Assembly (NCBI RefSeq): GCF_016698645.1
Contig: NZ_CP068047.1
Span: 2,639,001 to 2,703,000 of the forward strand
DNA length: 64,000 bases
Source: Devosia oryziradicis
GTDB taxonomy: Bacteria > Pseudomonadota > Alphaproteobacteria > Rhizobiales > Devosiaceae
Direction: 5' to 3'
Made by a program: the position numbers and the translations under genes. Shown piece after piece: positions 15,479 through 35,777 of the stretch (positions within the stretch are counted from its first letter, which is position 1; each line of letters begins with the position of its first letter). The notes below the pieces were generated by a model that saw only the letters and a list, made by a program, of their open reading frames with translations, made no database searches and was not told the origin of the DNA.

Positions 15479-16918
15479 ATGATGCAAAGCAAGGCGATCT
15501 ACGCCGAGCCTGAGGTCGCGGAGATGATCCAGGACTTCGAGCAGCGCAGCGGCGCCTTTGCCATCCGCGAAGGCGGTGTATCGCTCTGGCGGCTGATGCG
15601 TTTCGAAGCGTCAGTGCAATTGCAGAATCTGGAGCTTCGCCGGGCCGCTATTCCCCGTTCGCAATTGATGCGATCGCTTCCACGTGCTGCCTGGCAATTC
15701 GCGTTCGCCAAGCGGGGCTTACGGTATATTGGCAAAACGTCAAATTCGGGCCTTCGAGACAAACGAAATGGCACCTACCGGGACATCTATTTCGATGATC
15801 TTGTCGACGCCGTCCCAGGGGGAGCCATGTTCTCCTCGCTCGATACAGCCGGCTTTGAAGAAGCTAGCCGCAATGCCCATCGACAGCCCGTGTTTGACGA
15901 TACGGCAGTGGTCATAAGTAGTGCGGTACTCGGACGACTACTTGGGCGCCGCCCCCCCTCTCCCGCAAGCGCGCAACTGGCGGGCCTCATCGCCGACGGA
16001 CTCGGTCTTTCCGAGTTTACTCCCGCGCGGGTACAGCAGAAGTACGATGTGTTTCGTTGGCGCGCAGCGATCTACAAAAAAGTCCTCAGACGATTTGGGG
16101 TGGGAATTGTGCTGGCTGCCAATACGGGTCTGCACTCTCTGATCGCGGCTGCCAGGTCGGTTGGAATACCGTATGTGGAAATCCAGCACGGGGATTTCGG
16201 CGAGCATCACCCCGAGTCACTGCCGACCTCGGCGCTCAAGACCGGACTTGAGGGTCTCCTGCTGCCGGACCGGCTCGCGGTTTTCGGCGAGCGCGACCTT
16301 GATCGGCTTTCCGGCACCGCCTTGGGCCAACTTGGACGCTTGCGCGCTGTTGGCGCGCCAGCCATTGCGAATGGCCGAGCGCTGCGGGAGAGCAATTTCC
16401 GGGCAGACCCTGCACTGCCGGTCATTACATTCACGTCGCAGGGCTTTGCCCTGGACCAGGTGGATCGGTTTATCACCGACTTCCTCGCCATCAGTCACGA
16501 ACCCTTTCGCCTCATCATACGGCTTCACCCGGGCTATGAAGGTGATGGTGCGAACTATCGTTCGATCGCTGAAACCGATCCGCGGCTCATTGTGATGCCA
16601 GGCGACGCTGCGCCCGCCACGCATGAGGTCATAGCCTTGTCTGATTTGCACTTAAGCATATCTTCTACCTGTCACTACGACGCGCTTGGCATCGGGACCC
16701 CCACGCGGGTGCTCGGGCTGCCCGGACATGCGAGTATGGCCGAACTGGTGGACACGGGCATGGCGAAGCGCATCGATACTCCCGAGCAACTAGCCCTTGT
16801 GGTAAAGCAGCGCGATTGGGGCTCGGTGACTGCCGGGCAATCAAGCTACTTTTTCAAACCCGGCTACATCGACAACATGGTCGAACTGTTGGCTGAGTTG
16901 GATGTCGGGACGCAATGA
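15479..16918 (+). CDS. Unclassified GT-B-like glycosyltransferase of a polysaccharide cluster
   Basis: A 479-residue cytoplasmic protein. Two ATGs are adjacent (15479 and 15482). The N-terminal 200 residues match no domain I know (for example EGGVSLWRLMRFEASVQL). The second half looks GT-B-like: YVEIQHGDFGEHHP, LIIRLHPGYEGDG, and an 'SSTCHYDALGIGTPTRVLG' segment reminiscent of the nucleotide-site region in UDP-GlcNAc epimerase-fold and capsule transferases. It has no GT4 E-x7-E motif. The neighbours (flippase upstream, HisH overlapping by 4 bases) suggest it adds one sugar of the O-unit. Function is inferred from context only. Confidence 0.6.
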   Translation: MMQSKAIYAEPEVAEMIQDFEQRSGAFAIREGGVSLWRLMRFEASVQLQNLELRRAAIPRSQLMRSLPRAAWQFAFAKRGLRYIGKTSNSGLRDKRNGTYRDIYFDDLVDAVPGGAMFSSLDTAGFEEASRNAHRQPVFDDTAVVISSAVLGRLLGRRPPSPASAQLAGLIADGLGLSEFTPARVQQKYDVFRWRAAIYKKVLRRFGVGIVLAANTGLHSLIAAARSVGIPYVEIQHGDFGEHHPESLPTSALKTGLEGLLLPDRLAVFGERDLDRLSGTALGQLGRLRAVGAPAIANGRALRESNFRADPALPVITFTSQGFALDQVDRFITDFLAISHEPFRLIIRLHPGYEGDGANYRSIAETDPRLIVMPGDAAPATHEVIALSDLHLSISSTCHYDALGIGTPTRVLGLPGHASMAELVDTGMAKRIDTPEQLALVVKQRDWGSVTAGQSSYFFKPGYIDNMVELLAELDVGTQ

Positions 16919-17532
16919 TCACGATCGTAGACTATGGAACAAGTAATCTCGGTTCGATGACCAACATGCTGCGCAAGATCGGTCAGGCGTCCCGGATTGC
17001 GTCAACACCTGATCAACTCGCAGATGCCAGCAAAATCATTCTGCCCGGGGTAGGCTCATTCGATGCCGGGATGCGAAAACTCGCGCAATCGGGCATGATT
17101 CCAATGCTCAATCGGAAGGTCGTCGAAGAGCGGGTTCCGACCCTAGGCGTTTGCCTTGGGATGCACCTCATGACGCGGGGCAGTGAGGAGGGCGACCTCC
17201 CGGGCCTAGGCTGGCTACCCGCGGAAACCGTCAGGTTCGACCAGGTGGCAGAGCCGACACTGCGGGTTCCGCACATGGGCTGGAACCAGGTCCACGCCGC
17301 CAAAAGCAGTGTGGTGACGGAAGCCATGCCCGAGGAGACCCGTTTCTACTTCGCCCATTCCTACTTTGTGCGGCCTGATGACCCATCCGATATTTTGTTC
17401 GAAGCGCAGTACGGGGCGTCTCGTTTCGCGGCGGCGCTGGCGAAGGGCAACATTGTCGCTGGCCAGTTCCATCCAGAAAAGAGCCACCGTTACGGCATGT
17501 GGCTGCTCAAAAATTTCGCGGAGCGGTTCTGA
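16915..17532 (+). CDS. hisH: HisH-type glutamine amidotransferase subunit, sugar amidination module 1
   Basis: A 205-residue class I glutaminase related to imidazole glycerol phosphate synthase HisH. The nucleophile elbow is GVCLGMHL (Cys80) and the partner His-Glu pair is in GQFHPEKS. It would release ammonia for the HisF encoded immediately downstream (1-base overlap). Placement beside a WbpG-like gene matches P. aeruginosa hisH2-hisF2-wbpG, where ammonia is used to turn an acetamido group into an acetamidino group. It is therefore probably not the histidine-pathway copy. It overlaps the preceding gene by 4 bases. Confidence 0.88.
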   Translation: MITIVDYGTSNLGSMTNMLRKIGQASRIASTPDQLADASKIILPGVGSFDAGMRKLAQSGMIPMLNRKVVEERVPTLGVCLGMHLMTRGSEEGDLPGLGWLPAETVRFDQVAEPTLRVPHMGWNQVHAAKSSVVTEAMPEETRFYFAHSYFVRPDDPSDILFEAQYGASRFAAALAKGNIVAGQFHPEKSHRYGMWLLKNFAERF

Positions 17533-18287
17533 TGCTCAAGACGCGCGTGATACCAACCTTGCTTCTGCGTGGAGAAGGACTGGTCAAAACCACAGGTTTC
17601 CGCAACCCGAAATACGTCGGCGATCCAATCAACGCGATCAAGATATTCAACGACAAGGAAGTCGATGAACTGATCCTGCTGGACATCAACGCGACAAACA
17701 CATCCAAGGGGCCAGCCTTCGACACGCTAGAAGACATAGCCGGCGAGTGCTTCATGCCGGTGGCCTATGGCGGAGGGATCAGCAACGTCGAGCAGATCCG
17801 CCGCATTCTGGGCATCGGCATCGAAAAGGTGGTGATCAACTCCGCAGCTATCAAAAATCCAGATCTGATTGCAACGGCAGCGCGAGAATTCGGCAATCAA
17901 GCCGTTGTGGTGTCCATTGACGTCAAGAAGACACTGCTGGGCCGGTACGAGGTCCGCAGCCATTCCGGCAGCAAAGGCACTAGCTTGGATCCGGCAGCAT
18001 GGGCCCGTCAGGTCCAGGATCTGGGTGCCGGGGAGATCATGCTGACCAGTATCGAACGGGATGGAACGATGCGCGGCTACGACATCGATCTTGTCCGCAA
18101 AGTTAGCGAAGCAACAAACGTCCCGCTGATTGCCGCCGGGGGCGCTGGCAAACTGGCCGATTTCGGCGCTGCTGTGGCAAACGGTGCAGATGCGGTCGCG
18201 GCTGGCGCAATGTTCGTATTCCATGGCCCTCACCGGGCCGTATTGATCACGTATCCGTCGCGCGTTGATCTGGAAGCGGTGTTGTAA
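17532..18287 (+). CDS. hisF: HisF-type cyclase-like subunit, sugar amidination module 1
   Basis: A 251-residue (beta-alpha)8 barrel of the HisF family; ATG 17532 overlaps the HisH stop by one base. The barrel keeps the phosphate-binding loops (PVAYGGGISN, IAAGGAGKLADF). Of the two catalytic aspartates of histidine-pathway HisF, Asp130 is present (VSIDVKK), but the position of Asp11 is leucine (IPTLLLRGEGLVKT). This argues against imidazole glycerol phosphate synthesis and for a role as ammonia channel in sugar amidination, as proposed for HisF2 in P. aeruginosa O-antigen clusters. The polymerase-like gene starts at its stop codon. Confidence 0.88.
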   Translation: MLKTRVIPTLLLRGEGLVKTTGFRNPKYVGDPINAIKIFNDKEVDELILLDINATNTSKGPAFDTLEDIAGECFMPVAYGGGISNVEQIRRILGIGIEKVVINSAAIKNPDLIATAAREFGNQAVVVSIDVKKTLLGRYEVRSHSGSKGTSLDPAAWARQVQDLGAGEIMLTSIERDGTMRGYDIDLVRKVSEATNVPLIAAGGAGKLADFGAAVANGADAVAAGAMFVFHGPHRAVLITYPSRVDLEAVL

Positions 18288-19522
18288 TGCCCTTCCGCTA
18301 CATTGTCTTGTTCTGTTTTGCCGCACCGCTTGTCGGCATCATGCAGATGGAGGCTGGGAGTTACGGCGGCTCTGTATTGCAAAGTGGCCATCCTAACAGC
18401 GCTACATTGGCGTTTGGCTTGGGGATCGCGGCGTTTACTGCTTCCTTGATGCTGGCCCGAGCGTTGATTTCCTTCCGCTTTGACTGGCTCTCCCCTCGTC
18501 CTGCGCCAGTTCCTGACGACCGGATATGGATCCTGGCAACGCTGTCGCTGGCCGGCATGGCGCTTTTCACCATGTTTGTCGCGGGCGGAATCAATGTCAT
18601 TTCCCGTACCATTGGCCGTGGCGATTTCCGTACCGAGTTGGGCGATGCCGGCGCCATCAGCTATTTGATCCTCAAATACTACTCCCCGGCGATCATGGCC
18701 TACTTGGCCCTCATCTACGCGCGGCGACCATGGTACGACGCAGCGATCCCGCTTGCCGTGCCGGCAATCATTGTTGCGCTCATTGCGTTGTCGTTCGGCT
18801 TCAAATCCGGGGTCGTGCTGGCATTCCTGCCTGCCGCGGTGGTTTATTTCTGGCGGGTGCCTGACTGGATGGTCATCCCTCTCGCCGCCCTAGCATTCTT
18901 GGGCATTTATGTTGGCTACAGCTTCTTTGATGGCCTCTCTGACCCGTCGACCATTCTTGACCGCTTGTTCTACCGATTGACGGTCCTCCAGGGCGACGTT
19001 GCATGGAAAATCTGGGACCTCCATGCACGCGGGGACGTGCTGCCCAGCTACATCGCTTCGCTACCAGCTATATTTGGGGACCGGGTTTTCACCCTGGTTA
19101 CCGGTATTGACCGAACCATGGAACTCGATTGGGTCGCTACCCACTTCGGCCTACTCACCACATATCTGTCGGGATACCCCATCCACGTCATCATGGCCGG
19201 CCATAACAATACCGCCACAATCTTTTCGGAAGGCGTCCTGATCGGAGGACTGAGCGGCGTGATTGGCATTTTCGCTTTCGCGGGCGTTCTGACGGCGGCG
19301 CTTTACGACTTCATCCGGGTTTGCCTCCAGAGAAACCGTTATGTAGAAGCCTCGCTTGCCTCGAGCTACTTCGTTTTTGCCCTGATGGCCTGGCTATTGG
19401 GTGGCGGCATTACCGCAATCCTGCACATTTCGATTCTGGCCGGGCTCGTTACGGGCTACGTCCTGCTCAAGATCATTGAAGGGCGGCGCGGGGATACCGG
19501 CGCCGAAGTCTATGCAATATAA
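18287..19522 (+). CDS. O-unit polymerase-like membrane protein (Wzy candidate)
   Basis: A 411-residue protein with about ten to twelve hydrophobic helices and a large polar loop (about residues 225-310: RLFYRLTVLQGDVAWKIWDL, then GLLTTYLSG and GHNNTATIFSEG). Wzy proteins have little sequence conservation, so the call rests on topology, on the loop between late helices, and on position inside the O-unit module. It starts at ATG 18287 overlapping the HisF stop by one base and runs 11 bases into the amidotransferase gene. Its insertion between HisF and its WbpG-like partner is unusual. Confidence 0.72.
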   Translation: MPFRYIVLFCFAAPLVGIMQMEAGSYGGSVLQSGHPNSATLAFGLGIAAFTASLMLARALISFRFDWLSPRPAPVPDDRIWILATLSLAGMALFTMFVAGGINVISRTIGRGDFRTELGDAGAISYLILKYYSPAIMAYLALIYARRPWYDAAIPLAVPAIIVALIALSFGFKSGVVLAFLPAAVVYFWRVPDWMVIPLAALAFLGIYVGYSFFDGLSDPSTILDRLFYRLTVLQGDVAWKIWDLHARGDVLPSYIASLPAIFGDRVFTLVTGIDRTMELDWVATHFGLLTTYLSGYPIHVIMAGHNNTATIFSEGVLIGGLSGVIGIFAFAGVLTAALYDFIRVCLQRNRYVEASLASSYFVFALMAWLLGGGITAILHISILAGLVTGYVLLKIIEGRRGDTGAEVYAI

Positions 19523-20624
19523 GACCTGTACGCGCTGCATCATGGACACCACCGATCCCGACATCGTCTTCGACGAGAATGGGGTCTGCAGCCATTGCCA
19601 TCGCTACGATCGGGTGGCCGGGCAGCGTCTGGTGCCCCTCGACGAGCGCAAGGACAAGCTGGCGGCGCTTGTCGCAGAGATCAAAGCGTCCGGCCAAGGC
19701 AAGCCATATGACTGCGTGATCGGGGTCAGCGGCGGTGTCGACAGCACGTATGTCGCATACATCGTCAAGGAGCTTGACCTGCGTCCGCTAGCCATCCACC
19801 TCGACAATGGCTGGAATTCCGAACTGGCCGTCGCCAATATCCAGAAGACCCTAGAAAAGCTGGGTATCGACCTGCACACCCATGTGATCGACTGGATGGA
19901 GTTCCGCGACCTCCAGTTGTCGTTCCTCAAGGCGGCGACGCCGGACGGCGAAGTGCCAACCGACCACGCCATCTTCGCCCTGCTCTATGAGATGGCCGCC
20001 AAGCACAATCTCAAGCACGTCATCACCGGCACCAATGTGGTCTCGGAGGCGATACTTCCGGAGAAGTGGGGCTACGGCTATTTCGACTGGGCCTATGTAA
20101 AGGACGTACACAGACGCTTTGGCACGTCTCGGCTTGCCACCTATCCGCATTTCTCGCTGGCAAAGCTGGCATATTACATCTTCGTTCGGAAGATTCGCCT
20201 CGTCTCGATCCTCAACTTCATCGACTATGACAAGAAAGTCGCGATGGACGTCCTGCAGAATGAGCTGGGATGGGTCTATTACGGGGGCAAGCACTACGAG
20301 TCGATTTACACCCGCTTTTACCAAGCCTACCTGCTGCCGCGAAAGTTCGACATCGACAAGCGCAAGGCTCACTACTCCAACCTGGTCCTGTCCGGCCAGA
20401 TGACGCGAGACCAAGCGCTCGCGGCCATGCAGGAGCCGGTCTATCCGGAAAAACTCCTGATCGAGGATCGGGACTATGTGACCAAGAAACTTGGGCTTAA
20501 GGGACCGGAGCTCGACGCGATCGTCGCTTCCCCCAACAAAACCTTCGAGGATTACAAGACCAGCCATGGGCTGTTCGAAACGGCGAAGCGGCTCGTCAAT
20601 GCCACGCGCCGCTACATAGGCTGA
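19512..20624 (+). CDS. N-acetyl sugar amidotransferase, WbpG/PseA type, module 1
   Basis: A 370-residue ATP-pyrophosphatase-fold enzyme. ATG 19512 places the zinc-type cysteines at the N-terminus: C6-x2-C9 and C26-x2-C29. The PP-loop VIGVSGGVDSTYV lies near residues 71-83. Enzymes of this family activate a sugar N-acetyl group with ATP and replace its oxygen with nitrogen supplied by HisH/HisF, giving an acetamidino group. Here the likely substrate is the 2,3-diacetamido-uronic acid of this module. The upstream in-frame ATG at 19401 was rejected because the added residues are an out-of-frame reading of the polymerase gene. Confidence 0.88.
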   Translation: MQYKTCTRCIMDTTDPDIVFDENGVCSHCHRYDRVAGQRLVPLDERKDKLAALVAEIKASGQGKPYDCVIGVSGGVDSTYVAYIVKELDLRPLAIHLDNGWNSELAVANIQKTLEKLGIDLHTHVIDWMEFRDLQLSFLKAATPDGEVPTDHAIFALLYEMAAKHNLKHVITGTNVVSEAILPEKWGYGYFDWAYVKDVHRRFGTSRLATYPHFSLAKLAYYIFVRKIRLVSILNFIDYDKKVAMDVLQNELGWVYYGGKHYESIYTRFYQAYLLPRKFDIDKRKAHYSNLVLSGQMTRDQALAAMQEPVYPEKLLIEDRDYVTKKLGLKGPELDAIVASPNKTFEDYKTSHGLFETAKRLVNATRRYIG

Positions 20625-21884
20625 TTGTTGAAAGTCCTGTACATCCACATGATCGGCGCCTTCGGCGGCGCCTCACGCAGCTTGACCGAAGCAGTCGGCG
20701 CCTTCCCGCCAGGATCGGTGGACCCGTACTTCGTCACTGCGGCGGGCTCGGTGGAACCGTTTTTTGCGCGCCTCGGACCTGTCGAGACCGCTCGCGGGGT
20801 GAGCCAGTTCGACAATACGCGCTACAGCCACTATCGCGGCTTGCGCTGGCTGGTTGCCCTGCGCGAAGTCGCCTATCTGCCCGCTACCGTGCTCGCTCTG
20901 CTGCGCGCCAGAAGGCGGTGGGGCAAGGTTGACCTGATCCACGTCAATGAATTCACCGGCATTGTGCCGTGGTGGCTGGCCCGCCGCTTGTTTGGCGCGC
21001 CCGTAGTTGTGCATGTGCGGTCCGTTGCCCGCAACGACGCGCACTCGCTACGCACACGCTTCGTAACCTGGATGTTACGGAAGCGGGCAGAAGCCATTGT
21101 GGCGATTGACGAAACGGTGCGAGCCAGCCTACCCGCTGACCTGGCTGTCAGCGTGATCCACAATGCCTTTACGCCGCATCGCGTCGCCGTCGACGCGCCG
21201 CCACTGCCTGTTCCAAGCGGGCTCCGGTCCGGCTGGTTGCGTGTTGGTTTTGTCGGCAACCTGCTCAAGGTCAAGGGCATCCACGAACTCGTGGCCGCTG
21301 CCGCCATTGCGCGCGACCGTGGGCTCAACGTCGAATTCATCGTGGTGGGTGACGACGCTGCGCCGTCACGGGGCATAAAGGCCGGCCTGCTGCGGCAGCT
21401 TGGTTTGGGTCAAAACGCCAAGGAAGAGGTGTTGGCGGAGATAGAGCGGCTCAAGCTATCCGACCGCTTCCACATGCTGGGTTTCACTCAGCGAATCGCG
21501 GAGGCGTACGGCCTGATGGACGTGCTCTGCTTCCCCTCGCATTTCGATGCACCTGGCCGGCCCGTCTTCGAGGCGGCGTTTGGCGGCAAACCGGCAATTG
21601 TCTGCCTGTCCGATCCCAAGCCGGACACGCTAATTCACGGCGTTACCGGACTCGCAATTCCGGCCCGCGATCCTGTCGCGCTGGCCGATGCCATCGAGCG
21701 CCTCTGTCGCGACCCTGCCTTGGTACAGACGATGGGAGAGGCGGCCGCCGAAATGGCCCACCGCACTTTCGATCCACAAAGAAATGCAGCAGAACTGCTC
21801 GCGGTCTATCGCAGGGTCACGGCCGCAGACCGGCCTCGACAAGCATCTGTTGCCACATCTGCCAATTTGCCAACAGGCCGATGA
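20625..21884 (+). CDS. Glycosyltransferase family 4
   Basis: A 419-residue GT-B glycosyltransferase beginning at TTG 20625 or the adjacent TTG 20628, immediately after the amidotransferase stop. It has the glycine-rich IHMIGAFGGASRSL at the start, VGFVGNLLKVKGIHELVAAA in the donor domain, and CFPSHFDAPGRPVFEAAFGGKP as its E-x7-E-like region. It is the last gene of the first O-unit module. Its 3' end overlaps the convergent kinase gene by 68 bases, so the last 22 codons lie over the other gene's C-terminus. Confidence 0.85.
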   Translation: MLKVLYIHMIGAFGGASRSLTEAVGAFPPGSVDPYFVTAAGSVEPFFARLGPVETARGVSQFDNTRYSHYRGLRWLVALREVAYLPATVLALLRARRRWGKVDLIHVNEFTGIVPWWLARRLFGAPVVVHVRSVARNDAHSLRTRFVTWMLRKRAEAIVAIDETVRASLPADLAVSVIHNAFTPHRVAVDAPPLPVPSGLRSGWLRVGFVGNLLKVKGIHELVAAAAIARDRGLNVEFIVVGDDAAPSRGIKAGLLRQLGLGQNAKEEVLAEIERLKLSDRFHMLGFTQRIAEAYGLMDVLCFPSHFDAPGRPVFEAAFGGKPAIVCLSDPKPDTLIHGVTGLAIPARDPVALADAIERLCRDPALVQTMGEAAAEMAHRTFDPQRNAAELLAVYRRVTAADRPRQASVATSANLPTGR

Positions 21885-22797
21885 ACTTTTCATGCTCGGC
21901 CTGCCAACCTGGGTCGTCCCATCGAGGGTTGGCGTGAAGGATACCCAGGCTGAAGAGCAATCGGGCCGTAGCAATGCATTCCAGCTCGCCGGCCGATAGG
22001 TCCGCCAGGCCGCGACCGTAGCCGCCCAAAAAAGCCGCCGAAAGACGGGCACCGAGCGCCGGTGCGGCGCCGGCGAGACAGAAGCGCTCAAGCCCAATGG
22101 CGAGGTCGATCAGTGGCGAGCCGGTTGCGGCAATAGCATCATCGAAGTCGAGCACGGCCACTACCCCCTCGGGTCCCATCAGCACGTTTCCGCGATGATA
22201 GTCGTTGTGGATGAGTTGACTGCCTTGGTCCAACATATCGACAACCGCCTCCCACCGGGACAGAATGTCGGCGGCTTTTTCGCCCACCAATGGGTCTTGC
22301 GACGCGCAATTCCGTAGGCGCAGGATGACGGCGTGCCATTGCTCCGATATCTTTGCCGGTGCCACTGACGGGGCAATCGAGGACAGTGCTTCGTGTATGC
22401 CTCGCAGGGCGGCCCCAACCTGCCCCGCCTCGGACGTGCTGTCCTGTGCAAATCGCTCGGGGATGTAGGGATAGATCAGGCCCATCGCATCTTCTGTAAT
22501 GTGCAGGGGTGCGCCGAGCATGGGCTGCACAGGGCACCCTGCCCCTTGCAGTTGCGTTACCAAAGCCTGGACAGCCTGGACATGCGAAAGGCGCTCCCGC
22601 GGTGAAACCTTTACGAAGAGTGCCTGCTCGCCTGTCACCCGATAATAGCCATACGGAGCCGCATGCGCCGTCCTGGCCCGATCTACAGCTCTGGCGCCCA
22701 GGTCCCGCCTGAGGGTATCTGCCACCTCGCCCGATATCGGTTCATAGTGCAGCGGCAACGGCCGGAGCGCTGGGTGCGCTGGAAGATCAACTGCCAT
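21817..22797 (-). CDS. APH-fold phosphotransferase in the reverse-strand cassette
   Basis: A kinase of about 326 residues with the aminoglycoside/choline kinase fold. The catalytic loop is QLIHNDYHRGNVLMGPEG and the metal-binding motif is VVAVLDFDDAIA; the N-lobe has YGYYRVTGEQALFVKVSP. ATG 22797 (MAVDLPAHPAL) gives an 11-base overlap with the upstream gene; in-frame ATGs at 22809 and 22818 are alternatives. It is last in an apparent three-gene operon with a NeuB-like protein and a glycosyltransferase/methyltransferase fusion, so its substrate may be a sugar or small alcohol made or attached there. That is inference; the substrate is unknown. Confidence 0.78.
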   Translation of the reverse strand: MAVDLPAHPALRPLPLHYEPISGEVADTLRRDLGARAVDRARTAHAAPYGYYRVTGEQALFVKVSPRERLSHVQAVQALVTQLQGAGCPVQPMLGAPLHITEDAMGLIYPYIPERFAQDSTSEAGQVGAALRGIHEALSSIAPSVAPAKISEQWHAVILRLRNCASQDPLVGEKAADILSRWEAVVDMLDQGSQLIHNDYHRGNVLMGPEGVVAVLDFDDAIAATGSPLIDLAIGLERFCLAGAAPALGARLSAAFLGGYGRGLADLSAGELECIATARLLFSLGILHANPRWDDPGWQAEHEKFIGLLANWQMWQQMLVEAGLRP

Positions 22798-23842
22798 CGT
22801 CGATGTCATCGGCCACAATCGGCTGTCCGGCGGTCAGAGGCCTTGCAAGTCGGCGCCCCTCGACGCTATCCCACATCTCGACCCCGAGGCCCGCGGCCGG
22901 AAAGCTAAAGCGAACCTTAGCGCGTGACAGCGCGGTACCCGTCGGCAAATCGGCGTTGGCGACCAGCCCCATCCGATCCGGCGGACGCGGTCGATCTGCG
23001 GGAAAGGACCGCTGGGAATCGCCCAGCGATTGATAGACCCGCTCAATACGCTGCAGCAGTTCAGGTAGCTGGGAGATCGGCAGCGCATGGGCCAGGTCGA
23101 TGTCGCCGTGCGCGGCGTCAGCGCGAATGCCCTTCTCGAGCGCATGCGCCCCCAGCGCCACGGCCGTCAGTACGCTTTCAGTGCCCTGGTCGTGGTCGGA
23201 CAGGCCGCACAACGTGGCATGGGTCTTCCCGAGAGCAGCCATCATGCGGAGGTTGAATGCTGAGACCGCGGCGGGGGGGCCAGGCGGGCTATGCTGGATT
23301 AGCATTTTTTCCGCACCCGCCGCACGGGCCCAGCCGACGGCGCGGGCAATCTCGTCCATGCTTGAGCGGCCGGTGTCAATAATCAGCGGCAGCCCAGTTG
23401 CTGACAGCGAGCGAATGAGCGGCGCATGCACAATGTTGCTGCTGGCCACCTTGACAGCATCGACCTGCATGTCGCGCGCAAATGCCAGCCCTTCGTCGTC
23501 ATAGATGCTCATGACCAGGTCTAGTCCCGCGTCTCGCGCAGCAGTCATGATCACCTCAAGATCGCTGAGCCGAACAACATGACGCTCCAGCACAGCACGG
23601 TAGCTTTCTTGCACCATGCCGCGGCCGGGGACAAAATACTGCGTGTCCCCATGAGGTGCGGCAAGTGTCACGTCGTGGATTATGGCACCCTTGAGTACCG
23701 TGGCACCGGACGCCGCGATCCGAGCCACAAGGTCCAGAGCCAAGCCGAGATCTGCCTTGAAGTAGACGTCGATATCCGGGAAAAAAGCCGGAGGATGTCC
23801 CGGACCGACTGCAGTCCTGCCGATATTAAATGGTTGATTCAA
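22787..23842 (-). CDS. Divergent NeuB-like (sialic acid synthase family) protein with SAF domain
   Basis: A 351-residue protein, TTG start at 23842 overlapping the upstream stop. The barrel follows NeuB in outline: VDAVKVASSNIVHAPLIRS for the KIPSGE region, LIIDTGRSSMDEI for ISTGM, LIQHSPPGPPAAVSAFNLR for LHCTS-YPA-NLR, and GLSDHDQGTES for GYSDHT-G. A SAF-like domain follows (residues about 285-350). Several landmarks are altered: the usual EAGxNH N-terminus is absent, KFQ is replaced by LKG, the SGE glutamate is lost and EKHF reads EKGI, so one of the two metal-binding histidines of NeuB is missing. A different or degenerate reaction is likely. Compare the canonical NeuB at 36479-37510. Confidence 0.75.
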   Translation of the reverse strand: MNQPFNIGRTAVGPGHPPAFFPDIDVYFKADLGLALDLVARIAASGATVLKGAIIHDVTLAAPHGDTQYFVPGRGMVQESYRAVLERHVVRLSDLEVIMTAARDAGLDLVMSIYDDEGLAFARDMQVDAVKVASSNIVHAPLIRSLSATGLPLIIDTGRSSMDEIARAVGWARAAGAEKMLIQHSPPGPPAAVSAFNLRMMAALGKTHATLCGLSDHDQGTESVLTAVALGAHALEKGIRADAAHGDIDLAHALPISQLPELLQRIERVYQSLGDSQRSFPADRPRPPDRMGLVANADLPTGTALSRAKVRFSFPAAGLGVEMWDSVEGRRLARPLTAGQPIVADDIDDGS

Positions 23843-25938
23843 TTGTCCTCAGCCAATTCGATTTTGAGGCAGTGCATGGGCAGTTGCATGATGCCGTTGC
23901 GTAGCGTGCGCCTTCCCTCCCCCGCTGCCTCCGTCCAGGAGCGCACCGGGTCGGGCTGCGGAGCAAGATCGAATGGAAGTTCGAAGGGCAGGAATTCTGC
24001 ACCAGCGACGCGGCGCTGCCCGGCCAGGAAAGCCCTCACGCTTTCCATTGACGCCATGTTGTAGCCGGGATGCCACGGGGCGTCCCACTGGGCCGGATAG
24101 CGCCAGTGAATGCGGGCATCCAGCGGAAATGGGTTGAACAGTCCGGTGACCAGGACGGTGCCACCTCCCTTTGCTACGCGAATGCACTCAGCAAGCGAGG
24201 TGCGGAAGTCTTCAAAGATGCTGTGTGTGCCGGTCATGAGCACAACCTCGAATTGCCCCGAAGTAAGGTCGCGCAGATCGTTGGCGTCACCCTGCACGAC
24301 TGGCCGGCCACGTTCGCGGCCTTGCGCCACCAAGGCCGGATCAAATTCGATGCCCTGGAGTTCCGCTTGTGGAAAACGATCCGCCGCATAGGACAGAAAA
24401 TCGCCGGCTGCTGCACCGACATCGAGCAGGCTTGCCGGCTGATCGTGCCGCCGCTCAATCTGGTCGCCCAACCAAACGAACATGTGCTTGGGCCGAGTGG
24501 GCTGGGCGTTTGGGGCGTAGACCGACGCTCGGCTATATCCGGTATCGCCGCGCACTGCCTTGTTGGGCCTGCCGGCTATCCAGCGGTCGACTTCCTTGAG
24601 GATGCGTTCGCCTGCGCGTCCATCGAGCACACCCCATTCCGCCCCCCTGGCGCGCTGCTGCGCCGCCAGGCGCGCGTAGGTGCCGTCTACGCTGGCCATG
24701 GCCAACAGAAGGCGCTCGACACCGTCCATTTCGCGCAGTTCGACAACACCGGCCACGCCCTCGTAGGTGGAAAGATCGAGCCGATACATATCGTAGTTGA
24801 CGACAGGTTTGCCGCACGCGATCGCCCACCGGCTGGTGCTGGAAAATGACGTCAGCAGAACGTCATGTCGAGGAATGAGCTCAATGATCCACTGTTCGGA
24901 GATTGCAACACCTTGCGCAGCCCAAAGCGCACGATCCTCAGCGAGGGTCGCAGGATGAAGGCTGACCGTCACATCAGCGCGGCCGCCGCATTTTGCCGCT
25001 GCCACGAAGCGCCGGACCGTCTCAGCGTATGTGGCGAACTCGGCCAATTTCGCGTGGGTGTCGTGGCGGCTTGGCGGTGGCGCCAGTAATACGCTTAACC
25101 GCTCTGGTTCCATTGGGCGGCCATATGCCGCCGTCTGGGCCAACGCCGGCTGTGCGGCCAGCACCGACGCAACGGCGTCAGCGTAAAAACTGCCGGTCAT
25201 TACCAGTTTTTCCGCCGGAACTCCCTCCCGGCGATAGATGCGCTCCATTGCCGGCGATTCAACAAGCAGCGCGTCAGCGGACCCACCGTGCACAACCCAG
25301 GGCTGCTCGATATCGAGTCCTACGGCCACTCGTGCGAGAATGACCTCGACCGGCATCAGGGTAGCATCGCCCTGCTCGATCGTCTTGATCCAGTTTCCAG
25401 CATAGCGCCTTAGGTTGGTGCCGGCTTCCGAAGTCGGCACCAAGTTGAGATTGCCCTCTCTGGCCCTGTCTCGGAGGGCATTGTCGTAGTCCCTGCTCTC
25501 GCCGATGCCGAATGGCATATCCAGCACGGGAATCCGCCGATCTTTTGCAGCCGCTATCAATGCCGCGCACCCTCCTGGTCCGTCTTCACAGACCAGCAAC
25601 AAGCTCGCATCAGCCTCGTCTAGCATCAGCCGGGCCGCTTTGCGCTGGCCGGAGAACATGGCGCGATAGGAAAGTTCACCTTCGGTCGGCGTCCACGCGG
25701 TCAGCTCCGCCAGAGACACAGTTTCCGCATCGCTCAATTCGGTCCTGGCCACTCGCTCCACAAAGTCCGCGAACTGCATTCCGGCCGCCTCGGCTCCCGT
25801 CCGAATTGCGGCGCTGACGCCTGACAGCTCGCTGAAGTTGACCATCAAGACCTCGTGGCCCTGCCGCTGCATCGCGTTGGCAGCGAGTTGGAGAAGCGTG
25901 AGTTGTGAGATCGAGGAAGCAGCGAAAATGATCATCAT
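23839..25938 (-). CDS. Glycosyltransferase-like / SAM methyltransferase fusion protein
   Basis: A 699-residue two-part protein. Residues 1 to about 460 look GT-B-like: MIIFAASSISQLTLLQLAAN at the N-terminus, SLHPATLAEDRALW, then LLTSFSSTSRWAIACGKP and VVNYDMYR in the nucleotide-site region. A linker of about 40 residues leads to a class I methyltransferase (residues about 504-690) with motif I LLDVGAAAGDFLSYA, the acidic ribose-binding loop GIEFDPALV, and VVQGDANDL. It is first in the reverse operon; the NeuB-like gene overlaps its stop by TTGA. The fusion suggests transfer and methylation of the same residue. No exact family is recognised. Confidence 0.72.
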   Translation of the reverse strand: MMIIFAASSISQLTLLQLAANAMQRQGHEVLMVNFSELSGVSAAIRTGAEAAGMQFADFVERVARTELSDAETVSLAELTAWTPTEGELSYRAMFSGQRKAARLMLDEADASLLLVCEDGPGGCAALIAAAKDRRIPVLDMPFGIGESRDYDNALRDRAREGNLNLVPTSEAGTNLRRYAGNWIKTIEQGDATLMPVEVILARVAVGLDIEQPWVVHGGSADALLVESPAMERIYRREGVPAEKLVMTGSFYADAVASVLAAQPALAQTAAYGRPMEPERLSVLLAPPPSRHDTHAKLAEFATYAETVRRFVAAAKCGGRADVTVSLHPATLAEDRALWAAQGVAISEQWIIELIPRHDVLLTSFSSTSRWAIACGKPVVNYDMYRLDLSTYEGVAGVVELREMDGVERLLLAMASVDGTYARLAAQQRARGAEWGVLDGRAGERILKEVDRWIAGRPNKAVRGDTGYSRASVYAPNAQPTRPKHMFVWLGDQIERRHDQPASLLDVGAAAGDFLSYAADRFPQAELQGIEFDPALVAQGRERGRPVVQGDANDLRDLTSGQFEVVLMTGTHSIFEDFRTSLAECIRVAKGGGTVLVTGLFNPFPLDARIHWRYPAQWDAPWHPGYNMASMESVRAFLAGQRRVAGAEFLPFELPFDLAPQPDPVRSWTEAAGEGRRTLRNGIMQLPMHCLKIELAEDN

Positions 25939-26069
25939 GGTCCTGACGCCAGCGCCCTCGGTTCACTCATGTGCGGTTGAGGCAAGACAAGCTATGTCGT
26001 GAGCAACGGTTGCGCTTGCGCCGGCGGGAAACTATCGCCAGATTTGTCCAGCAACAACAAGGCCTTTCC

Positions 26070-27167
26070 TTGCCGAAAGTTCTCCTCTCCGCACGGGATG
26101 CCGCTGCAGCCCACCACATTGCCGAAATGGTCAGTCTTGCCGCCCAGCCGGGCTGGCAAGTGGTCGTTGTCGCACAGGCCCCGGCCCTGCTGATCCTGCA
26201 AGCGCTCGGCGTTGACTGCATCCCGGTACTGCTTCCGCCCGTTACTGTCGGAAGCGATGCCGAAGCCATGCTGCACCTTGCCAAAGGCCTCCTTGACGCA
26301 GAAAAGCCCGATATCATCGTCGCTGGCCTGTCGTCTCCGGGGGACGGCGGTATCGATGAAGCTCTGCTTGCCGTACGCAAGGTACCTGCGTTGCTTATGC
26401 AGGACTTCTGGGGCGAGCAGAACCGCTTTTTCGGTAGCGGAGCCGATGCCTTCCTGGCGTTGGACGAGTATGCTCGGACGGTCAATCAGGCCAAGCATGG
26501 TAAGTCCAGCTTCGTCGTCGGTTCGCCCCGGCATGCCAGGTTGGCGCGCCTGGACCTTGCCGCAGAACGCCGTAAGATACGGTCAAAACTAAATATTTCT
26601 GAGAACCAGTCGGTCTATGGTTGGTTCGGTCAGTCGCTACACCATATTCCTGGCTACCGAAAATCTCTTGCCGCCTGGATTGAAGCGATTGCCGATACCG
26701 GTTGCCAGCTAGTCTATAAGCCTCATCCTCGGGAGAGTGCCGCGGGGCAGCAGGCAACAGAGTCCCTGTTCGCCGCCGCTGGAGTAACCCAACGCACCTT
26801 GTCGGATTGGACAATTGAGTCTGCCCTTTTGGCTTGCGACGTTGCGACCAGTATTTTGTCGAACTGCCTATACGACGCAGCCTATTTGAACTATTTCTCC
26901 GCCACGCCTTTGATCGCTCCCGTTGCGTGGCTGACCGAGCAGGAAGTCCGGGCTGTCTTCGATGCAGTGACCAGCGTTCACGACCTTCCCTATCAAAGCG
27001 CAGGGATTGCTCATCTGGTTCAAGAACGGGCCGACATGAACAGGGTCCGCTCAGCCGCGTTGCCCGAAACGCGCAGGCAACTCTGGCAGGCAGCGCGCGC
27101 CAATTTGACTGATCCCAGAGAGGCGGGCGACCGCGTGGCGGCAGCAATACTGGCAACCCTCAATTAG
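26070..27167 (+). CDS. Unclassified GT-B-like glycosyltransferase
   Basis: About 365 residues if started at TTG 26070 (LPKVLLSARDAAAAHHIAEM). The open frame extends upstream to GTG 25971, but those 33 residues are arginine/glutamine-rich and no ribosome binding site precedes that GTG, while AAGG precedes the TTG. Features are a Rossmann-like N-terminus, LQDFWGEQNRFF, the segment VYGWFGQSLHHIPGYRKS, LVYKPHPRESAAG, and SILSNCLYDAAYLNYFSATP. The pattern of a phosphate-type HP motif followed by a serine-rich loop recalls capsule and UDP-GlcNAc-epimerase-fold transferases. It is divergent from the fusion gene. Substrate unknown. Confidence 0.6.
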   Translation: MPKVLLSARDAAAAHHIAEMVSLAAQPGWQVVVVAQAPALLILQALGVDCIPVLLPPVTVGSDAEAMLHLAKGLLDAEKPDIIVAGLSSPGDGGIDEALLAVRKVPALLMQDFWGEQNRFFGSGADAFLALDEYARTVNQAKHGKSSFVVGSPRHARLARLDLAAERRKIRSKLNISENQSVYGWFGQSLHHIPGYRKSLAAWIEAIADTGCQLVYKPHPRESAAGQQATESLFAAAGVTQRTLSDWTIESALLACDVATSILSNCLYDAAYLNYFSATPLIAPVAWLTEQEVRAVFDAVTSVHDLPYQSAGIAHLVQERADMNRVRSAALPETRRQLWQAARANLTDPREAGDRVAAAILATLN

Positions 27168-32995: not shown

Positions 32996-34312
32996 ATGGA
33001 ACGGATCCCGTCGCCGCGCGGAGTGGACAAGAGTCAGTTTTCGGCAGATCTGGCCGATCCGGGCACGATGTACGGCCTCCCCCAGGAAGTGGTGTTCTGC
33101 AAGCGTTGCGTGATCTCCAACCAGCGCCCGAACTCGGCTGTCGAATACCAGCACACCAAAGCTTCCAAGAAGAAGACCATTCACTTCGACGAGGAAGGCA
33201 TCTGCGACGCCTGCCGCTTTGCTGAGCGCAAGAACCAGGTGATCGATTGGGAAGAGCGTGAGCGTGCCCTGATCGAGGTCTGCAACCAGCATCGCAGCAC
33301 CGATGGCAGCTATGACTGCATTGTCCCCGGCTCCGGCGGCAAGGACAGCTTCTATGCATCGCATATCCTGCGCACCAAGTATGGTATGCACCCCCTGACG
33401 GTCACCTGGGCGCCCCACATCTACACCGAATGGGGTTGGAAGAACTTCCAGAGCTGGATCCATGCCGGCCACGACAACATGTTGATGACGCCCAATGGCC
33501 GCGCCCACCGGCTGCTGACCCGCCTCGCCGTCGATCTGCTGTTCCATCCCTTCCAGGCCTTCATGTTCGGCCAGAAGTCGCTGGCACCCAAGATGGCCCT
33601 GCTGCACAAGATTCCCTTGGTCTTCTACGGCGAGAACGAAGCCGAATATGGCAATCCGATCGCCGACACCGAAACGGCCAAGCGTGACTGGTCCTACTTC
33701 ACGGCAGCGGATCAGTCCAAGGTGCATCTGGGCGGCGTTTCGGTGACCGACCTCAAGAGCCAGTTTGGTCTCGTCCACCAGGACCTGCTACCCTATCTGC
33801 CGGCCGATCCTAACCAGATTGAGGAACAGAAGGTCGAAGTCCACTACCTCGGTTACTATCTCAAGTGGCATCCGCAGAGTGCCTACTACTACGCGGTGGA
33901 ACATGGTGGGTTTATCCCGTCCCCCGAGCGCACTCCTGGCACCTACTCCAAGTATAACAGCATCGACGACCGCATCGATGACTTCCATTACTACACGACC
34001 GGCACCAAGTTCGGTCTGGGACGAGCCAGCTACGACGCGGCGCAGGAAATCCGTTCTGGCGACATCGACCGCGATGAGGGTGTGGCCCTGGTCAAGCGCT
34101 TCGACCATGAGTTCCCCGAGCGCTTCGCCGATGAGATCTTCCGCTACCTGAGCATCCCGGAAAATGAGTTCCCCGAGGCGAACAAGATGTTCGAGGAACC
34201 GATCATGGACCGTGATTACTTCACGCGGCTGACAGACACGTTCCGCTCACCGCATCTCTGGAAGTGGCAAGACGACAAGTGGCAGCTGCGCCACGCCGTC
34301 TGGAATCAGTAA
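32996..34312 (+). CDS. N-acetyl sugar amidotransferase, WbpG/PseA type, module 2
   Basis: A 438-residue ATP-pyrophosphatase-fold enzyme with GAAGGAAG before ATG 32996. Zinc-type cysteines are C35-x2-C38 and C70-x2-C73, separated by an insert containing a lysine run (TKASKKKTI). The PP-loop PGSGGKDSFYASH is near residue 112. It is longer than the module-1 enzyme (370 residues) and clearly diverged from it. In Campylobacter the related PseA/LegA types amidinate nonulosonic acids; the genes after it encode HisF, HisH and a nonulosonate pathway, so an amidinated legionaminic-type acid is the likely product. A strong hairpin follows the stop. Confidence 0.88.
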   Translation: MERIPSPRGVDKSQFSADLADPGTMYGLPQEVVFCKRCVISNQRPNSAVEYQHTKASKKKTIHFDEEGICDACRFAERKNQVIDWEERERALIEVCNQHRSTDGSYDCIVPGSGGKDSFYASHILRTKYGMHPLTVTWAPHIYTEWGWKNFQSWIHAGHDNMLMTPNGRAHRLLTRLAVDLLFHPFQAFMFGQKSLAPKMALLHKIPLVFYGENEAEYGNPIADTETAKRDWSYFTAADQSKVHLGGVSVTDLKSQFGLVHQDLLPYLPADPNQIEEQKVEVHYLGYYLKWHPQSAYYYAVEHGGFIPSPERTPGTYSKYNSIDDRIDDFHYYTTGTKFGLGRASYDAAQEIRSGDIDRDEGVALVKRFDHEFPERFADEIFRYLSIPENEFPEANKMFEEPIMDRDYFTRLTDTFRSPHLWKWQDDKWQLRHAVWNQ

Positions 34313-34322
34313 GCCACCCCTA

Positions 34323-34351
34323 GGGCCTGCCGCCAGCCGGCGGCAAGGCCC
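34323..34351 (+). other. Strong GC hairpin between amidotransferase and hisF
   Basis: GGGCCTGCCGCC (34323-34334) pairs with GGCGGC-A-AGGCCC (34339-34351) in a 12-bp stem with one bulged A and an AGCC loop. It starts 10 bases after the amidotransferase stop and ends 14 bases before the hisF start. No T-run follows, so an mRNA stabiliser or partial attenuator separating the expression of two partner proteins is more likely than full termination. Confidence 0.6.
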
Positions 34352-34365
34352 AGAAGTGAGGTCGA

Positions 34366-35127
34366 ATGAGCAATCTGCGCATAATTCCGCGTCTGGACAT
34401 CAAGGGCAAGAACCTGATCAAGGGCGTCCAGCTCGAGGGTCTGCGCGTCATGGGCGACCCCAACGACTTCGCCCTGCGCTACTATGAGGCTGGGGCCGAC
34501 GAATTGGTGTTCATGGATATCGTTGCCAGCCTTTACGGCCGCAACAATCTTTCCGACATCATCTCGCGAGCCGCCGACCAGGTGTTCATTCCGATCACCG
34601 TGGGCGGCGGCATCCGCTCGACCGACGATGCGCGCCACATCCTGCGCTCGGGTGCCGACAAGGTGGCGATCAACACGGCGGCCGTGAGCCGTCCCGAACT
34701 GATCACCGAAATTGCGCACCATTTCGGTTCGCAAGCCATGGTTCTGTCGATCGAGGCAAAGCTGGTTGCCCCAGGTCGATGGGAGGTCTTCACTGACAAC
34801 GGTCGGGAACGAACCGGGCTCGATGTGCTCGAATGGGCGGTCAAGGGTGTCACGCTGGGTGCTGGCGAAATCCTGCTGACCTCTGTTGACCGTGAGGGTA
34901 CACGGAAAGGCTTCGATGTTGACCTGGTCCGCAAGGTCAGCGACGCAGTCACTGTGCCGGTGATCGCCAGTGGCGGCATGGGCACGCTGGATCACTTTGT
35001 CGACGCTGCCGCAAAGGGACGCGCTGACGCCGTCTCCATGGCGCATGTTCTCCACTACAAGACCCTGACTCTTGGCGACATACGCGCGCGCGCCCTTGCC
35101 GAAGGCTTGGGAGTAAGGCAGATATGA
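34366..35127 (+). CDS. hisF: HisF-type cyclase-like subunit, sugar amidination module 2
   Basis: A 253-residue HisF-fold barrel with GAGG upstream of ATG 34366. It keeps Asp11 (IPRLDIKGKNLIKG) and the phosphate loops (ITVGGGIRST, IASGGMGTLDHF), but the second catalytic aspartate of histidine-pathway HisF, Asp130, is glutamate (VLSIEAK, Glu130). This is the reverse of the module-1 HisF, which lost position 11. Both are thus poorly suited to imidazole glycerol phosphate synthesis. It overlaps hisH by ATGA and presumably channels ammonia to the amidotransferase encoded upstream. Confidence 0.88.
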   Translation: MSNLRIIPRLDIKGKNLIKGVQLEGLRVMGDPNDFALRYYEAGADELVFMDIVASLYGRNNLSDIISRAADQVFIPITVGGGIRSTDDARHILRSGADKVAINTAAVSRPELITEIAHHFGSQAMVLSIEAKLVAPGRWEVFTDNGRERTGLDVLEWAVKGVTLGAGEILLTSVDREGTRKGFDVDLVRKVSDAVTVPVIASGGMGTLDHFVDAAAKGRADAVSMAHVLHYKTLTLGDIRARALAEGLGVRQI

Positions 35128-35777
35128 CCACCTCCCGCAGTGTCACCCTGCTCGACTACGGCATGTGCAACATGCTCAATGTCGCACGCGCCTTTGAGCG
35201 GGCTGGTGCCGACCTCAAGGTTACCGAAGATCCGCGCGATGCTGCGACGGCCGAGCGTTTGGTTGTGCCGGGTGTGGGCGCCTTTGGCGACAGCATGATC
35301 GAAGTGACGCGTCGCGGTCATGGCGATGCCATCCGCGCATTTGCCGAAACGGGGCGGCCGCTCCTGGGCATCTGCGTCGGCATGCAGATCCTGTTCGAAG
35401 GCAGCGAAGAGTTCGGCGATAGCCCAGGCCTGGGTGTCATTGCAGGCCGCGTCATGGCGGTGCCACCAAGGACGACGGCAGGCATTTCCCAACGCGTTCC
35501 CCACATCGGCTGGAACGAACTGCTCCTCCCCCCGTCCCGCAACACGTGGGACGGCACGATGATGCAGTCACAGGCGTCCGGGCCGCCGGCAGTCTATTTC
35601 GTGCATTCGTTCGTTCCGCACCCAACAGACCCCACGGACCGACTCGCAGATTTTGACTACGGCGGGCATCGCCTCTGCGCAGCGATCAAACGGGACAATA
35701 TTACAGCAACGCAGTTCCATCCCGAACGCAGCGGTGAGGTGGGGCTGGCCTTGCTGGCGAGCTTTGTCGGCTCCTGA
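35124..35777 (+). CDS. hisH: HisH-type glutamine amidotransferase subunit, sugar amidination module 2
   Basis: A 217-residue class I glutaminase. The start is TLLDYGMCNMLNVARAFERA, the nucleophile is in LLGICVGMQILFEGSEEFG (Cys84), and the His-Glu pair is in ATQFHPERSGEVG. Gene order is the reverse of module 1 (amidotransferase-HisF-HisH here, HisH-HisF-polymerase-amidotransferase there), so the two modules are not a simple recent duplication. It is followed after 3 bases by the nucleotidyltransferase gene. Confidence 0.88.
   Translation: MTTSRSVTLLDYGMCNMLNVARAFERAGADLKVTEDPRDAATAERLVVPGVGAFGDSMIEVTRRGHGDAIRAFAETGRPLLGICVGMQILFEGSEEFGDSPGLGVIAGRVMAVPPRTTAGISQRVPHIGWNELLLPPSRNTWDGTMMQSQASGPPAVYFVHSFVPHPTDPTDRLADFDYGGHRLCAAIKRDNITATQFHPERSGEVGLALLASFVGS

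What the first reader, a model, noticed from the sequence alone, without database searches (positions are those of the whole stretch)
21817..27167. Reverse-strand cassette of kinase, degenerate NeuB-like protein and glycosyltransferase/methyltransferase fusion
Three overlapping reverse genes interrupt two forward polysaccharide modules: an APH-fold kinase, a NeuB/SAF protein with altered catalytic landmarks, and a GT-like/methyltransferase fusion. A divergent unclassified GT-like gene accompanies them. I know no described pathway with this set. One reading is a terminal modification unit: in E. coli O9a, WbdD combines kinase and methyltransferase activities to cap O-antigen chains, and here a kinase and a methyltransferase are co-encoded with a transferase and a sugar-acid synthase relative. 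That reading is inference; the overlaps and domain contents are seen directly.
Basis: partly seen in the sequence, partly recalled or inferred. Interest (0 to 1): 0.72.

Follow-up and report, generated by a model that had tools for sequence, protein, structure and literature searches.

The report
NeuB-like sugar-decoration gene cassette
A set of neighbouring genes (a rebuilt relative of the sialic-acid-making enzyme NeuB, a small-molecule kinase, sugar-transferase-like proteins and a methyltransferase) recurs as one unit beside the genes for a rare sialic-acid-like sugar in many bacteria, so it probably makes and attaches an extra decoration to that surface sugar.

Summary
On the minus strand lie KIN (APH-fold kinase), NEUB' (NeuB+SAF) and FUS (GT-B domain fused to a methyltransferase); GTL, also GT-B, is divergent on the plus strand. 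NEUB' is not a decayed NeuB: it belongs to a clade (SH-aLRT 100) in which NeuB residues E134, Y186, H236 and R314 are replaced in 42 of 42 aligned members, while K129, S213, H215 and E234 are kept. The genes are not scattered. In 29 stretches (27 GTDB loci, one same-genus genome, the window) KIN follows NEUB' in 27 of 27 where the contig goes on; GTL is present in 23 of 29. The unit accompanies a canonical NeuB and the WbuX amidotransferase, hence probably an acetamidino-legionaminic-type sugar: WbuX in 26 of 29 genomes against 34 of 140 NeuB-bearing genomes of a phylum sample. It occurs in polysaccharide and in flagellin loci, which argues against an O-chain-ending (WbdD) role. By published annotation the Legionella pneumophila Sg1 region ORF8-ORF11 (methyltransferase, neuB family, phosphotransferase, hypothetical) looks like the same unit; its sequence could not be reached. 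Best reading: an accessory module that makes and attaches a methylatable substituent to a legionaminic-type sugar. The chemistry is unknown.

The parts
21817..22818 (-). KIN: APH-fold small-molecule kinase, catalytic H-x-D....N and following D motif intact
   Evidence: Pfam APH 66.9 bits; H204, D206, N211, D224 invariant in 18 aligned members; downstream of NEUB' in relatives
22787..23842 (-). NEUB': NeuB-fold TIM barrel plus SAF domain with remodelled active site (no E134, Y186, H236, R314)
   Evidence: separate clade, SH-aLRT 100
24499..25938 (-). FUS residues 1-480: GT-B fold glycosyltransferase-like domain (FUSN), a separate gene in the relatives
23839..24498 (-). FUS residues 481-699: SAM-dependent methyltransferase domain, a separate gene in the relatives
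   Evidence: Methyltransf_11 46.4 bits at 505-596; homologues
25971..27167 (+). GTL: GT-B fold protein of no named family, divergent from FUS; true start possibly TTG 26070
32996..34312 (+). WbuX-type N-acetyl sugar amidotransferase (partner pathway)
   Evidence: TIGR03573 385.1 bits, cut-off 203.2
34366..35777 (+). HisF-type and HisH-type amidotransferase subunits (partner pathway)
   Evidence: TIGR00735 hisF 297.5 (cut-off 294.55), WbuZ 284.1 (cut-off 299.7); hisH 183.1 (cut-off 105.4) bits
35781..39256 (+). PseF-like cytidylyltransferase, canonical NeuB, NeuC, NeuD (nonulosonic acid pathway)
   Evidence: PseF 150.9 (below cut-off 205.7), NeuB_NnaB 435.9 (cut-off 399.65), NeuC 389.7 (235.9), NeuD 187.6 (160.8) bits
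39261..40754 (+). LegC-family-like aminotransferase
   Evidence: TIGR04181 371.9 bits, below the cut-off 420

Best explanation
The cassette is an accessory module of a legionaminic-type nonulosonic acid (NulO) pathway, usually one that makes the acetamidino form (NeuB/NeuC/NeuD/LegC plus WbuX/HisH/HisF). NEUB' and KIN act in sequence in the cytoplasm to make a phosphorylated or otherwise prepared substituent; GTL and/or the FUS N-domain (GT-B fold) attach it to, or act on, the NulO residue; the methyltransferase domain, where present, methylates it. Shown: gene content, conservation as a unit, the family-wide active-site change in NEUB', intact kinase motifs, predicted GT-B folds, association with the NulO and amidotransferase genes. 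Inferred: the sugar, the order of steps, the substrate, and that NEUB' is still a carbon-carbon bond enzyme using PEP or a similar 3-carbon donor without the H236 metal ligand.
For: Unit: KIN on the same strand after NEUB' in 27 of 27 stretches with DNA downstream (L018 has a gene between), GTL in 23 of 29, methyltransferase 16 of 29, FUSN 13 of 29; divergences correlate, NEUB'-KIN r 0.83 (26 loci), NEUB'-GTL 0.81 (23), KIN-GTL 0.76 (23), 0 of 2000 permutations as high in each. Pathway link: canonical NeuB in the same stretch in 19 of 29 (2 partial) and in 28 of 29 genomes (19 over the TIGR03569 cut-off); WbuX over cut-off in 26 of 29 genomes against 40 of 397 other phylum-sample genomes and 34 of 140 of those with a NeuB, Fisher p 4e-11 (relatedness not corrected). 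Embedding: L012, L021 and L025 run LegB-LegC-NeuD-NeuB-NeuC-WbuX-HisF-HisH-NEUB'-KIN-GTL-NeuA and PtmE-like (either order)-Maf-flagellin. Enzyme: 29 invariant columns in 42 NEUB', so under selection; K53, K129, S213, H215, E234, D247 equivalents kept in 42 of 42, S132 in 41. Literature lead: an L. pneumophila orf8 mutant lacks N-methyl on legionaminic acid (PMC13306086, passages); ORF8-12 predicted as one operon, and ORF8 or ORF11 disruption in strain 130b loses mAb 20/1 reactivity (PMC3766260, section 10).
Against: No substrate or product is known. The sugar is inferred: in the window LegC and the cytidylyltransferase score below their cut-offs, and in 10 of 29 genomes the best NeuB other than NEUB' is below the TIGR03569 cut-off (6 of them at 360-397 bits, two near 290, one partial, one absent), so some may make another NulO. 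3 of 29 genomes lack WbuX, and loci L011 and L017 carry a deacetylase and a formyltransferase where others have WbuX (read by eye). 13 of 29 stretches show no methyltransferase of this family. GT-B folds closest to UDP-GlcNAc 2-epimerases do not prove transferase activity. In L. pneumophila the O-chain is described as a legionaminic homopolymer (PMC7867332, passages), no second sugar; transcript data in strain Paris give an operon without ORF8, and in other mAb-subgroups ORF8 and ORF9 are only about 31% alike and lie in opposite directions (PMC3766260).
Confidence: 0.6

Rival explanations
1. Chain-ending cap, WbdD-like: KIN phosphorylates and the methyltransferase methylates the non-reducing end of the polysaccharide and so stops growth.
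For: A kinase and a methyltransferase are co-encoded; the annotated L. pneumophila counterpart lies beside wzm/wzt, an ABC-transporter O-antigen system (PMC3766260), the class in which capping is known (recalled).
Against: The window has a Wzx-type flippase and a polymerase-like protein (TIGR04370 35.8 bits, cut-off 40); 5 of 29 stretches are Maf/flagellin loci; methyltransferase in 16 of 29; a NeuB relative has no role in WbdD (recalled).
Confidence: 0.1
2. NEUB' acts on the legionaminic-type sugar itself: a retro-aldol/aldol or related reaction that changes stereochemistry (for example a C4 or C8 epimer), with KIN preparing or trapping the substrate.
For: Same fold and several kept residues as the synthase that makes this kind of sugar, but the N-acyl contact R314 is lost in 42 of 42; epi-legionaminic acids exist in nature (recalled).
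Against: Does not explain the ever-present kinase; E134 and H236, thought to be needed for the aldol-type step (recalled), are gone.
Confidence: 0.15
3. NEUB' is a catalytically dead partner that regulates or scaffolds the canonical NeuB.
For: Loss of H236, E134 and R314 equivalents.
Against: New invariant D156, H139, H252, G238 and near-invariant R159 (38 of 42), and 29 invariant columns in all, look like a new active site; NEUB' is linked to KIN (27 of 27) more tightly than to canonical NeuB (19 of 29 stretches); its divergence correlates better with KIN (r 0.83) than with NeuB (0.67).
Confidence: 0.08
4. The whole unit serves only N-methylation of the acetimidoyl group, as reported for L. 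pneumophila ORF8.
For: ORF8 N-methyltransferase mutant (PMC13306086); ORF8 and ORF11 disruptions share a serological phenotype (PMC3766260); strong link to the amidotransferase.
Against: 13 of 29 stretches lack this methyltransferase; a methyltransferase needs no kinase or NeuB relative; L017 has NEUB' and KIN but no WbuX in its genome.
Confidence: 0.07

Closest known systems
L. pneumophila Sg1 LPS region ORF8-ORF12 (lpg0769-lpg0765)
   Same: By published annotation: methyltransferase (ORF8), neuB family (ORF9), phosphotransferase (ORF10), hypothetical protein (ORF11) in a row beside an acetamidino-legionaminic pathway (PMC3766260, PMC12308824)
   Different: Homology not tested by sequence here; ABC-transporter O-antigen; the passages read do not discuss the active site of its neuB protein; ORF8/ORF9 vary between strains
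Canonical NeuB / LegI / PseI synthases
   Same: TIM barrel plus SAF domain; K129, S213, H215, E234 equivalents kept
   Different: 126.4 and 128.5 bits against cut-offs of 399.65 and 340.25; E134, Y186, H236, R314 replaced in 42 of 42
Shewanella oneidensis sfmABCDE
   Same: An extra NeuB-domain protein (SfmA) and a methyltransferase in an operon needed for flagellin modification by a NulO whose added moiety can carry methyl groups (PMC3765264, passages)
   Different: No kinase in the operon as described; TPP enzyme, reductase and ATP-grasp proteins instead
E. coli O9a WbdD
   Same: Kinase and methyltransferase activities serving a surface polysaccharide (recalled)
   Different: One fused protein that caps the chain end; no NeuB relative (recalled)

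Membership tests
Canonical NeuB (TIGR03569) / PseI (TIGR03586) | Pfam NeuB and SAF domains | tested here: met
   135.5 and 35.4 bits
Canonical NeuB (TIGR03569) / PseI (TIGR03586) | Score above the curated cut-off | tested here: not met
   126.4 vs 399.65; 128.5 vs 340.25
Canonical NeuB (TIGR03569) / PseI (TIGR03586) | E134, H236 and R314 (Nme numbering) | tested here: not met
   replaced in 42 of 42 NEUB'; H236 and R314 kept in 22 of 22 comparison rows, E134 in 20 (D in 2)
WbdD | Kinase and methyltransferase in one polypeptide | tested here: not met
   KIN is separate; the methyltransferase is fused to a GT-B domain
WbdD | Caps the non-reducing end and sets chain length | not testable with these tools
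   needs glycan analysis
L. pneumophila ORF8-ORF12 unit | Methyltransferase, NeuB-family and phosphotransferase genes in a row, beside an acetamidino-NulO pathway | tested here: met
   window; the Legionella side rests on annotation in PMC3766260 and PMC12308824 only
L. pneumophila ORF8-ORF12 unit | Sequence homology of each gene, NEUB'-type substitutions in lpg0768 | not tested
   no Legionella sequence reached
Shewanella sfm operon | NeuB-domain, TPP enzyme, reductase, methyltransferase, ATP-grasp proteins | tested here: not met
   no TPP, reductase or ATP-grasp family in the four cassette genes
APH-fold kinases | Catalytic H-x-D....N and following D motif | tested here: met
   H204, D206, N211, D224 invariant in 18 of 18
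GT-B fold proteins (GTL, FUS N-domain) | Two-domain GT-B fold | tested here: met
   predicted models only; activity untested

The most novel reading that the evidence does not exclude
NEUB' is a new enzyme class on the NeuB scaffold (metal ligand H236 and E134 lost, new invariant D156/H139/H252) that makes an undescribed ulosonic-acid-type or small acid building block; KIN phosphorylates it and GT-B enzymes mount it on acetamidino-legionaminic acid in O-antigens, exopolysaccharides and flagella alike, an unrecognised pathway that would also explain orphan genes of the L. pneumophila Sg1 LPS locus.
Probability: 0.3. Interest if true: 0.78.

Novelty: new variant of a known kind. Interest (0 to 1): 0.62.

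Why it matters
It turns an odd three-gene observation into a defined, widespread module with a testable enzyme: a NeuB relative whose catalytic residues have been exchanged as a set and which, in every stretch that could be checked, travels with a kinase. It predicts an undescribed decoration on legionaminic-type sugars and, through the annotated match, offers a function for the neuB-family, phosphotransferase and hypothetical genes of a much-studied LPS locus; the function of the neuB-family gene there is called not fully understood (PMC12308824).

Tried and rejected
Viral contigs (one relative's sequence as query): no relative. Plasmids: only distant NeuB/PseI-type matches (45 and 37 records, all below 60% identity; of the 30 listed in each none above 35%), so no sign of plasmid carriage. 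PDB by sequence: only canonical NeuB/PseI/SpsE-type chains for NEUB', nothing convincing for GTL. The pseudoenzyme and WbdD readings were considered and set low (see rivals). The HP motif of GTL was first taken as a sign of a CMP-sugar transferase; since GTL matches UDP-GlcNAc 2-epimerases best, it is not used. In that sample of 201 genomes only G069 has NEUB' (581.6 and 471.3 bits, all other matches under 200).

Literature: searches searches listed no paper that I recognised as describing the NEUB' substitutions, or this gene set as a unit outside Legionella; only listings and the passages cited were seen, and subscription papers are mostly missing from that library. Passages of PMC7371886, PMC11340318, PMC8660822, PMC3091632 and PMC3694923 were also looked at and added nothing on the function of this set.

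Full report

The NeuB relative. A search with NEUB' found 87 proteins, with a fall from 39-100% identity (E 2e-47 or better, rows P0001-P0078) to 33% and lower (E 5e-32 and weaker, rows P0079-P0087). 42 of the first 78, aligned, have 29 invariant columns. Against 22 canonical or other NeuB-family rows NEUB' has, in 42 of 42, D for E25, P for Y186, G for H236, and F, W or L for R314; N (41) or G (1) for E134; A (38) or E (4) for Q55. It keeps K53, K129, S213, H215, E234 and D247 in 42 of 42 and S132 in 41. Nme numbering was read from the alignments; the list of catalytic-site residues (E25, Q55, T110, F112, K129, N184, Y186, S213, H215, E234, R314 among others) and the need for R314 are from passages of PMC6795526; the roles of E134, H236, K53 and D247 are recalled. 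The clade is one side of a branch with SH-aLRT 100 in a quick tree of 51 rows (21 NEUB'). It is a distinct family under selection, not a decayed gene.

The unit. A scan of the genome collection (84,980 species genomes by its description) with three conserved motifs gave 63 stretches, 27 of them relatives, in Alpha-, Beta- and Gammaproteobacteria and Vampirovibrio by record title (it sees only exact motif matches; L027 and L028 are contigs of the same length, 4,147 bases, and the same gene content in two bins, and are counted as two). With G010 (same genus as the window) and the window this makes 29 stretches. KIN follows NEUB' on the same strand in 27 of 27 where the contig continues (L024 and L029 end in NEUB'; in L018 one gene lies between; in L011 KIN is cut by the contig end). 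GTL is in 23 of 29; the six without it are L017 and five on contigs of at most 6.5 kb. The methyltransferase is in 16 of 29 (the window's as part of FUS) and FUSN in 13 of 29. In L003, L005 and L006 (Hoeflea and a Hyphomicrobiales MAG) GTL is divergent from FUSN-methyltransferase-NEUB'-KIN as in the window. Pairwise divergences correlate: NEUB'-KIN 0.83, NEUB'-GTL 0.81, KIN-GTL 0.76; NEUB' with canonical NeuB 0.67 and with WbuX 0.66; canonical NeuB with WbuX 0.80 (L028 left out); species relatedness is not removed from these figures.

The pathway. The window holds a canonical NeuB, NeuC, NeuD, a LegC-like aminotransferase, a cytidylyltransferase and a WbuX/HisF/HisH set, besides FnlA-, WbjC- and WecB-type genes and a second WbuX/HisH/HisF set. 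Canonical NeuB is in the stretch in 19 of 29 (two partial). At genome level a NeuB match other than NEUB' is in 28 of 29: 19 over the TIGR03569 cut-off, six at 360-397 bits, two near 290 bits (G066, G085), one partial at a contig end (G087); none in G076, a 2.5 Mb MAG. WbuX over cut-off is in 26 of 29 genomes (not in G075, G076, G085), against 41 of 398 in an even sample of the phylum, own genome included. Among sample genomes with a NeuB at E 1e-75 or better, own genome removed, it is 34 of 140, and among those over the NeuB cut-off 21 of 68; Fisher p 4e-11 and 9e-8, relatedness uncorrected; the two Vampirovibrio genomes very probably lie outside the window's phylum. NEUB' itself is rare: in the phylum sample of 398 only the window's own genome has it (E 1e-70), and 2 of 61 near relatives, own included, have it by score (514.6 and 391 bits, the rest about 190 or less). 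Against a strict link to amidination: L017 (no WbuX in its genome) and L011 carry a PIG-L-type deacetylase and a formyltransferase in that place (read by eye).

Context varies. Five stretches (L012, L017, L020, L021, L025) put the cassette in a run with Maf and flagellin genes; the window and G010 put it in a polysaccharide locus with a polymerase-like gene, the window also with a Wzx-type flippase. A role at the level of the sugar residue fits both; a role in ending O-chains does not.

Known parallels. In L. pneumophila Sg1, ORF8 (lpg0769, methyltransferase), ORF9 (lpg0768, neuB family) and ORF10-ORF12 are predicted as one operon next to the acetamidino-legionaminic pathway, and ORF8 or ORF11 disruption in strain 130b loses the same antibody reactivity (PMC3766260, sections 9 and 10 read, further passages). 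Against a tidy picture, transcript data in strain Paris leave ORF8 out of the operon, and in some mAb-subgroups ORF8 and ORF9 are about 31% alike to the others and lie in opposite directions. In strain Paris lpp0833 (ORF9) is annotated N-acetylneuraminate synthase family, lpp0832 (ORF10) phosphotransferase, lpp0831 (ORF11) hypothetical; these genes collected mutations during laboratory passage in hosts, and the function of lpp0833 is called not fully understood (PMC12308824, passages). [quoted passage not shown] ORF9-ORF10-ORF11 would be the order NEUB'-KIN-GTL of our gamma loci. I could not reach the Legionella sequences, so this is a match of annotation, not of sequence. Shewanella sfmABCDE is a looser parallel: an extra NeuB-domain protein and a methyltransferase in an operon needed for flagellin modification, where the moiety on the NulO can carry methyl groups (PMC3765264, passages).

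Mechanism. Most likely the module makes and mounts a substituent on the legionaminic-type residue: NEUB' and KIN prepare it, GTL and/or the FUS N-domain transfer it, the methyltransferase finishes it. That the unit belongs to NulO decoration I hold at about 0.85; that NEUB' is still a carbon-carbon bond enzyme at about 0.45; that its product is new to chemistry at about 0.3. Nothing here identifies a substrate.

Noticed in passing
window 16915-20624 and 32996-35777: Two separate WbuX/HisH/HisF amidotransferase sets in one locus; the first HisF is over the AglZ/HisF2 cut-off (361.8 vs 310), the second set is the one shared with the relatives. The FnlA/WbjC/WecB-type genes suggest that one set amidinates an L-FucNAc-type sugar (inference).
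   Followed up: partly
window 15479-16918: 479-aa protein between a Wzx-type flippase and HisH with no Pfam (E 1e-5) or NCBIfam (E 1e-6) family and no BLAST match (E 1e-6) among the reading frames of loci L003-L044.
   Followed up: no
window 39261-40754: LegC-like aminotransferase with about 115 extra N-terminal residues and a CBS-domain match (PF00571, 30.7 bits).
   Followed up: no
L011 and L017: In these two loci a PIG-L-type deacetylase and a formyltransferase stand where other loci have WbuX/HisF/HisH, suggesting a swap of the N-acyl group on the same sugar (the L017 proteins were read by eye, the L011 ones are in the same clusters).
   Followed up: partly
G069 (genome of L011, Methyloprofundus MAG): Eleven NeuB-type matches in one genome, two of them NEUB' by score.
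   Followed up: no
L007, L008 (Vampirovibrio MAGs): The order GTL-methyltransferase-NEUB'-KIN occurs in Vampirovibrio records, far from the Proteobacteria.
   Followed up: no
L003 15850-17487, L005 15704-17281, L006 15839-17851: A second FUSN-like GT-B protein about 4 kb beyond KIN; in L003 the gene before it is an ABC exporter with membrane and ATPase domains.
   Followed up: no
L045 12058-12786: In the same-genus genome G010 a second NeuA-like cytidylyltransferase lies directly upstream of FUSN and NEUB'; a possible hint that the cassette product is CMP-activated there.
   Followed up: no
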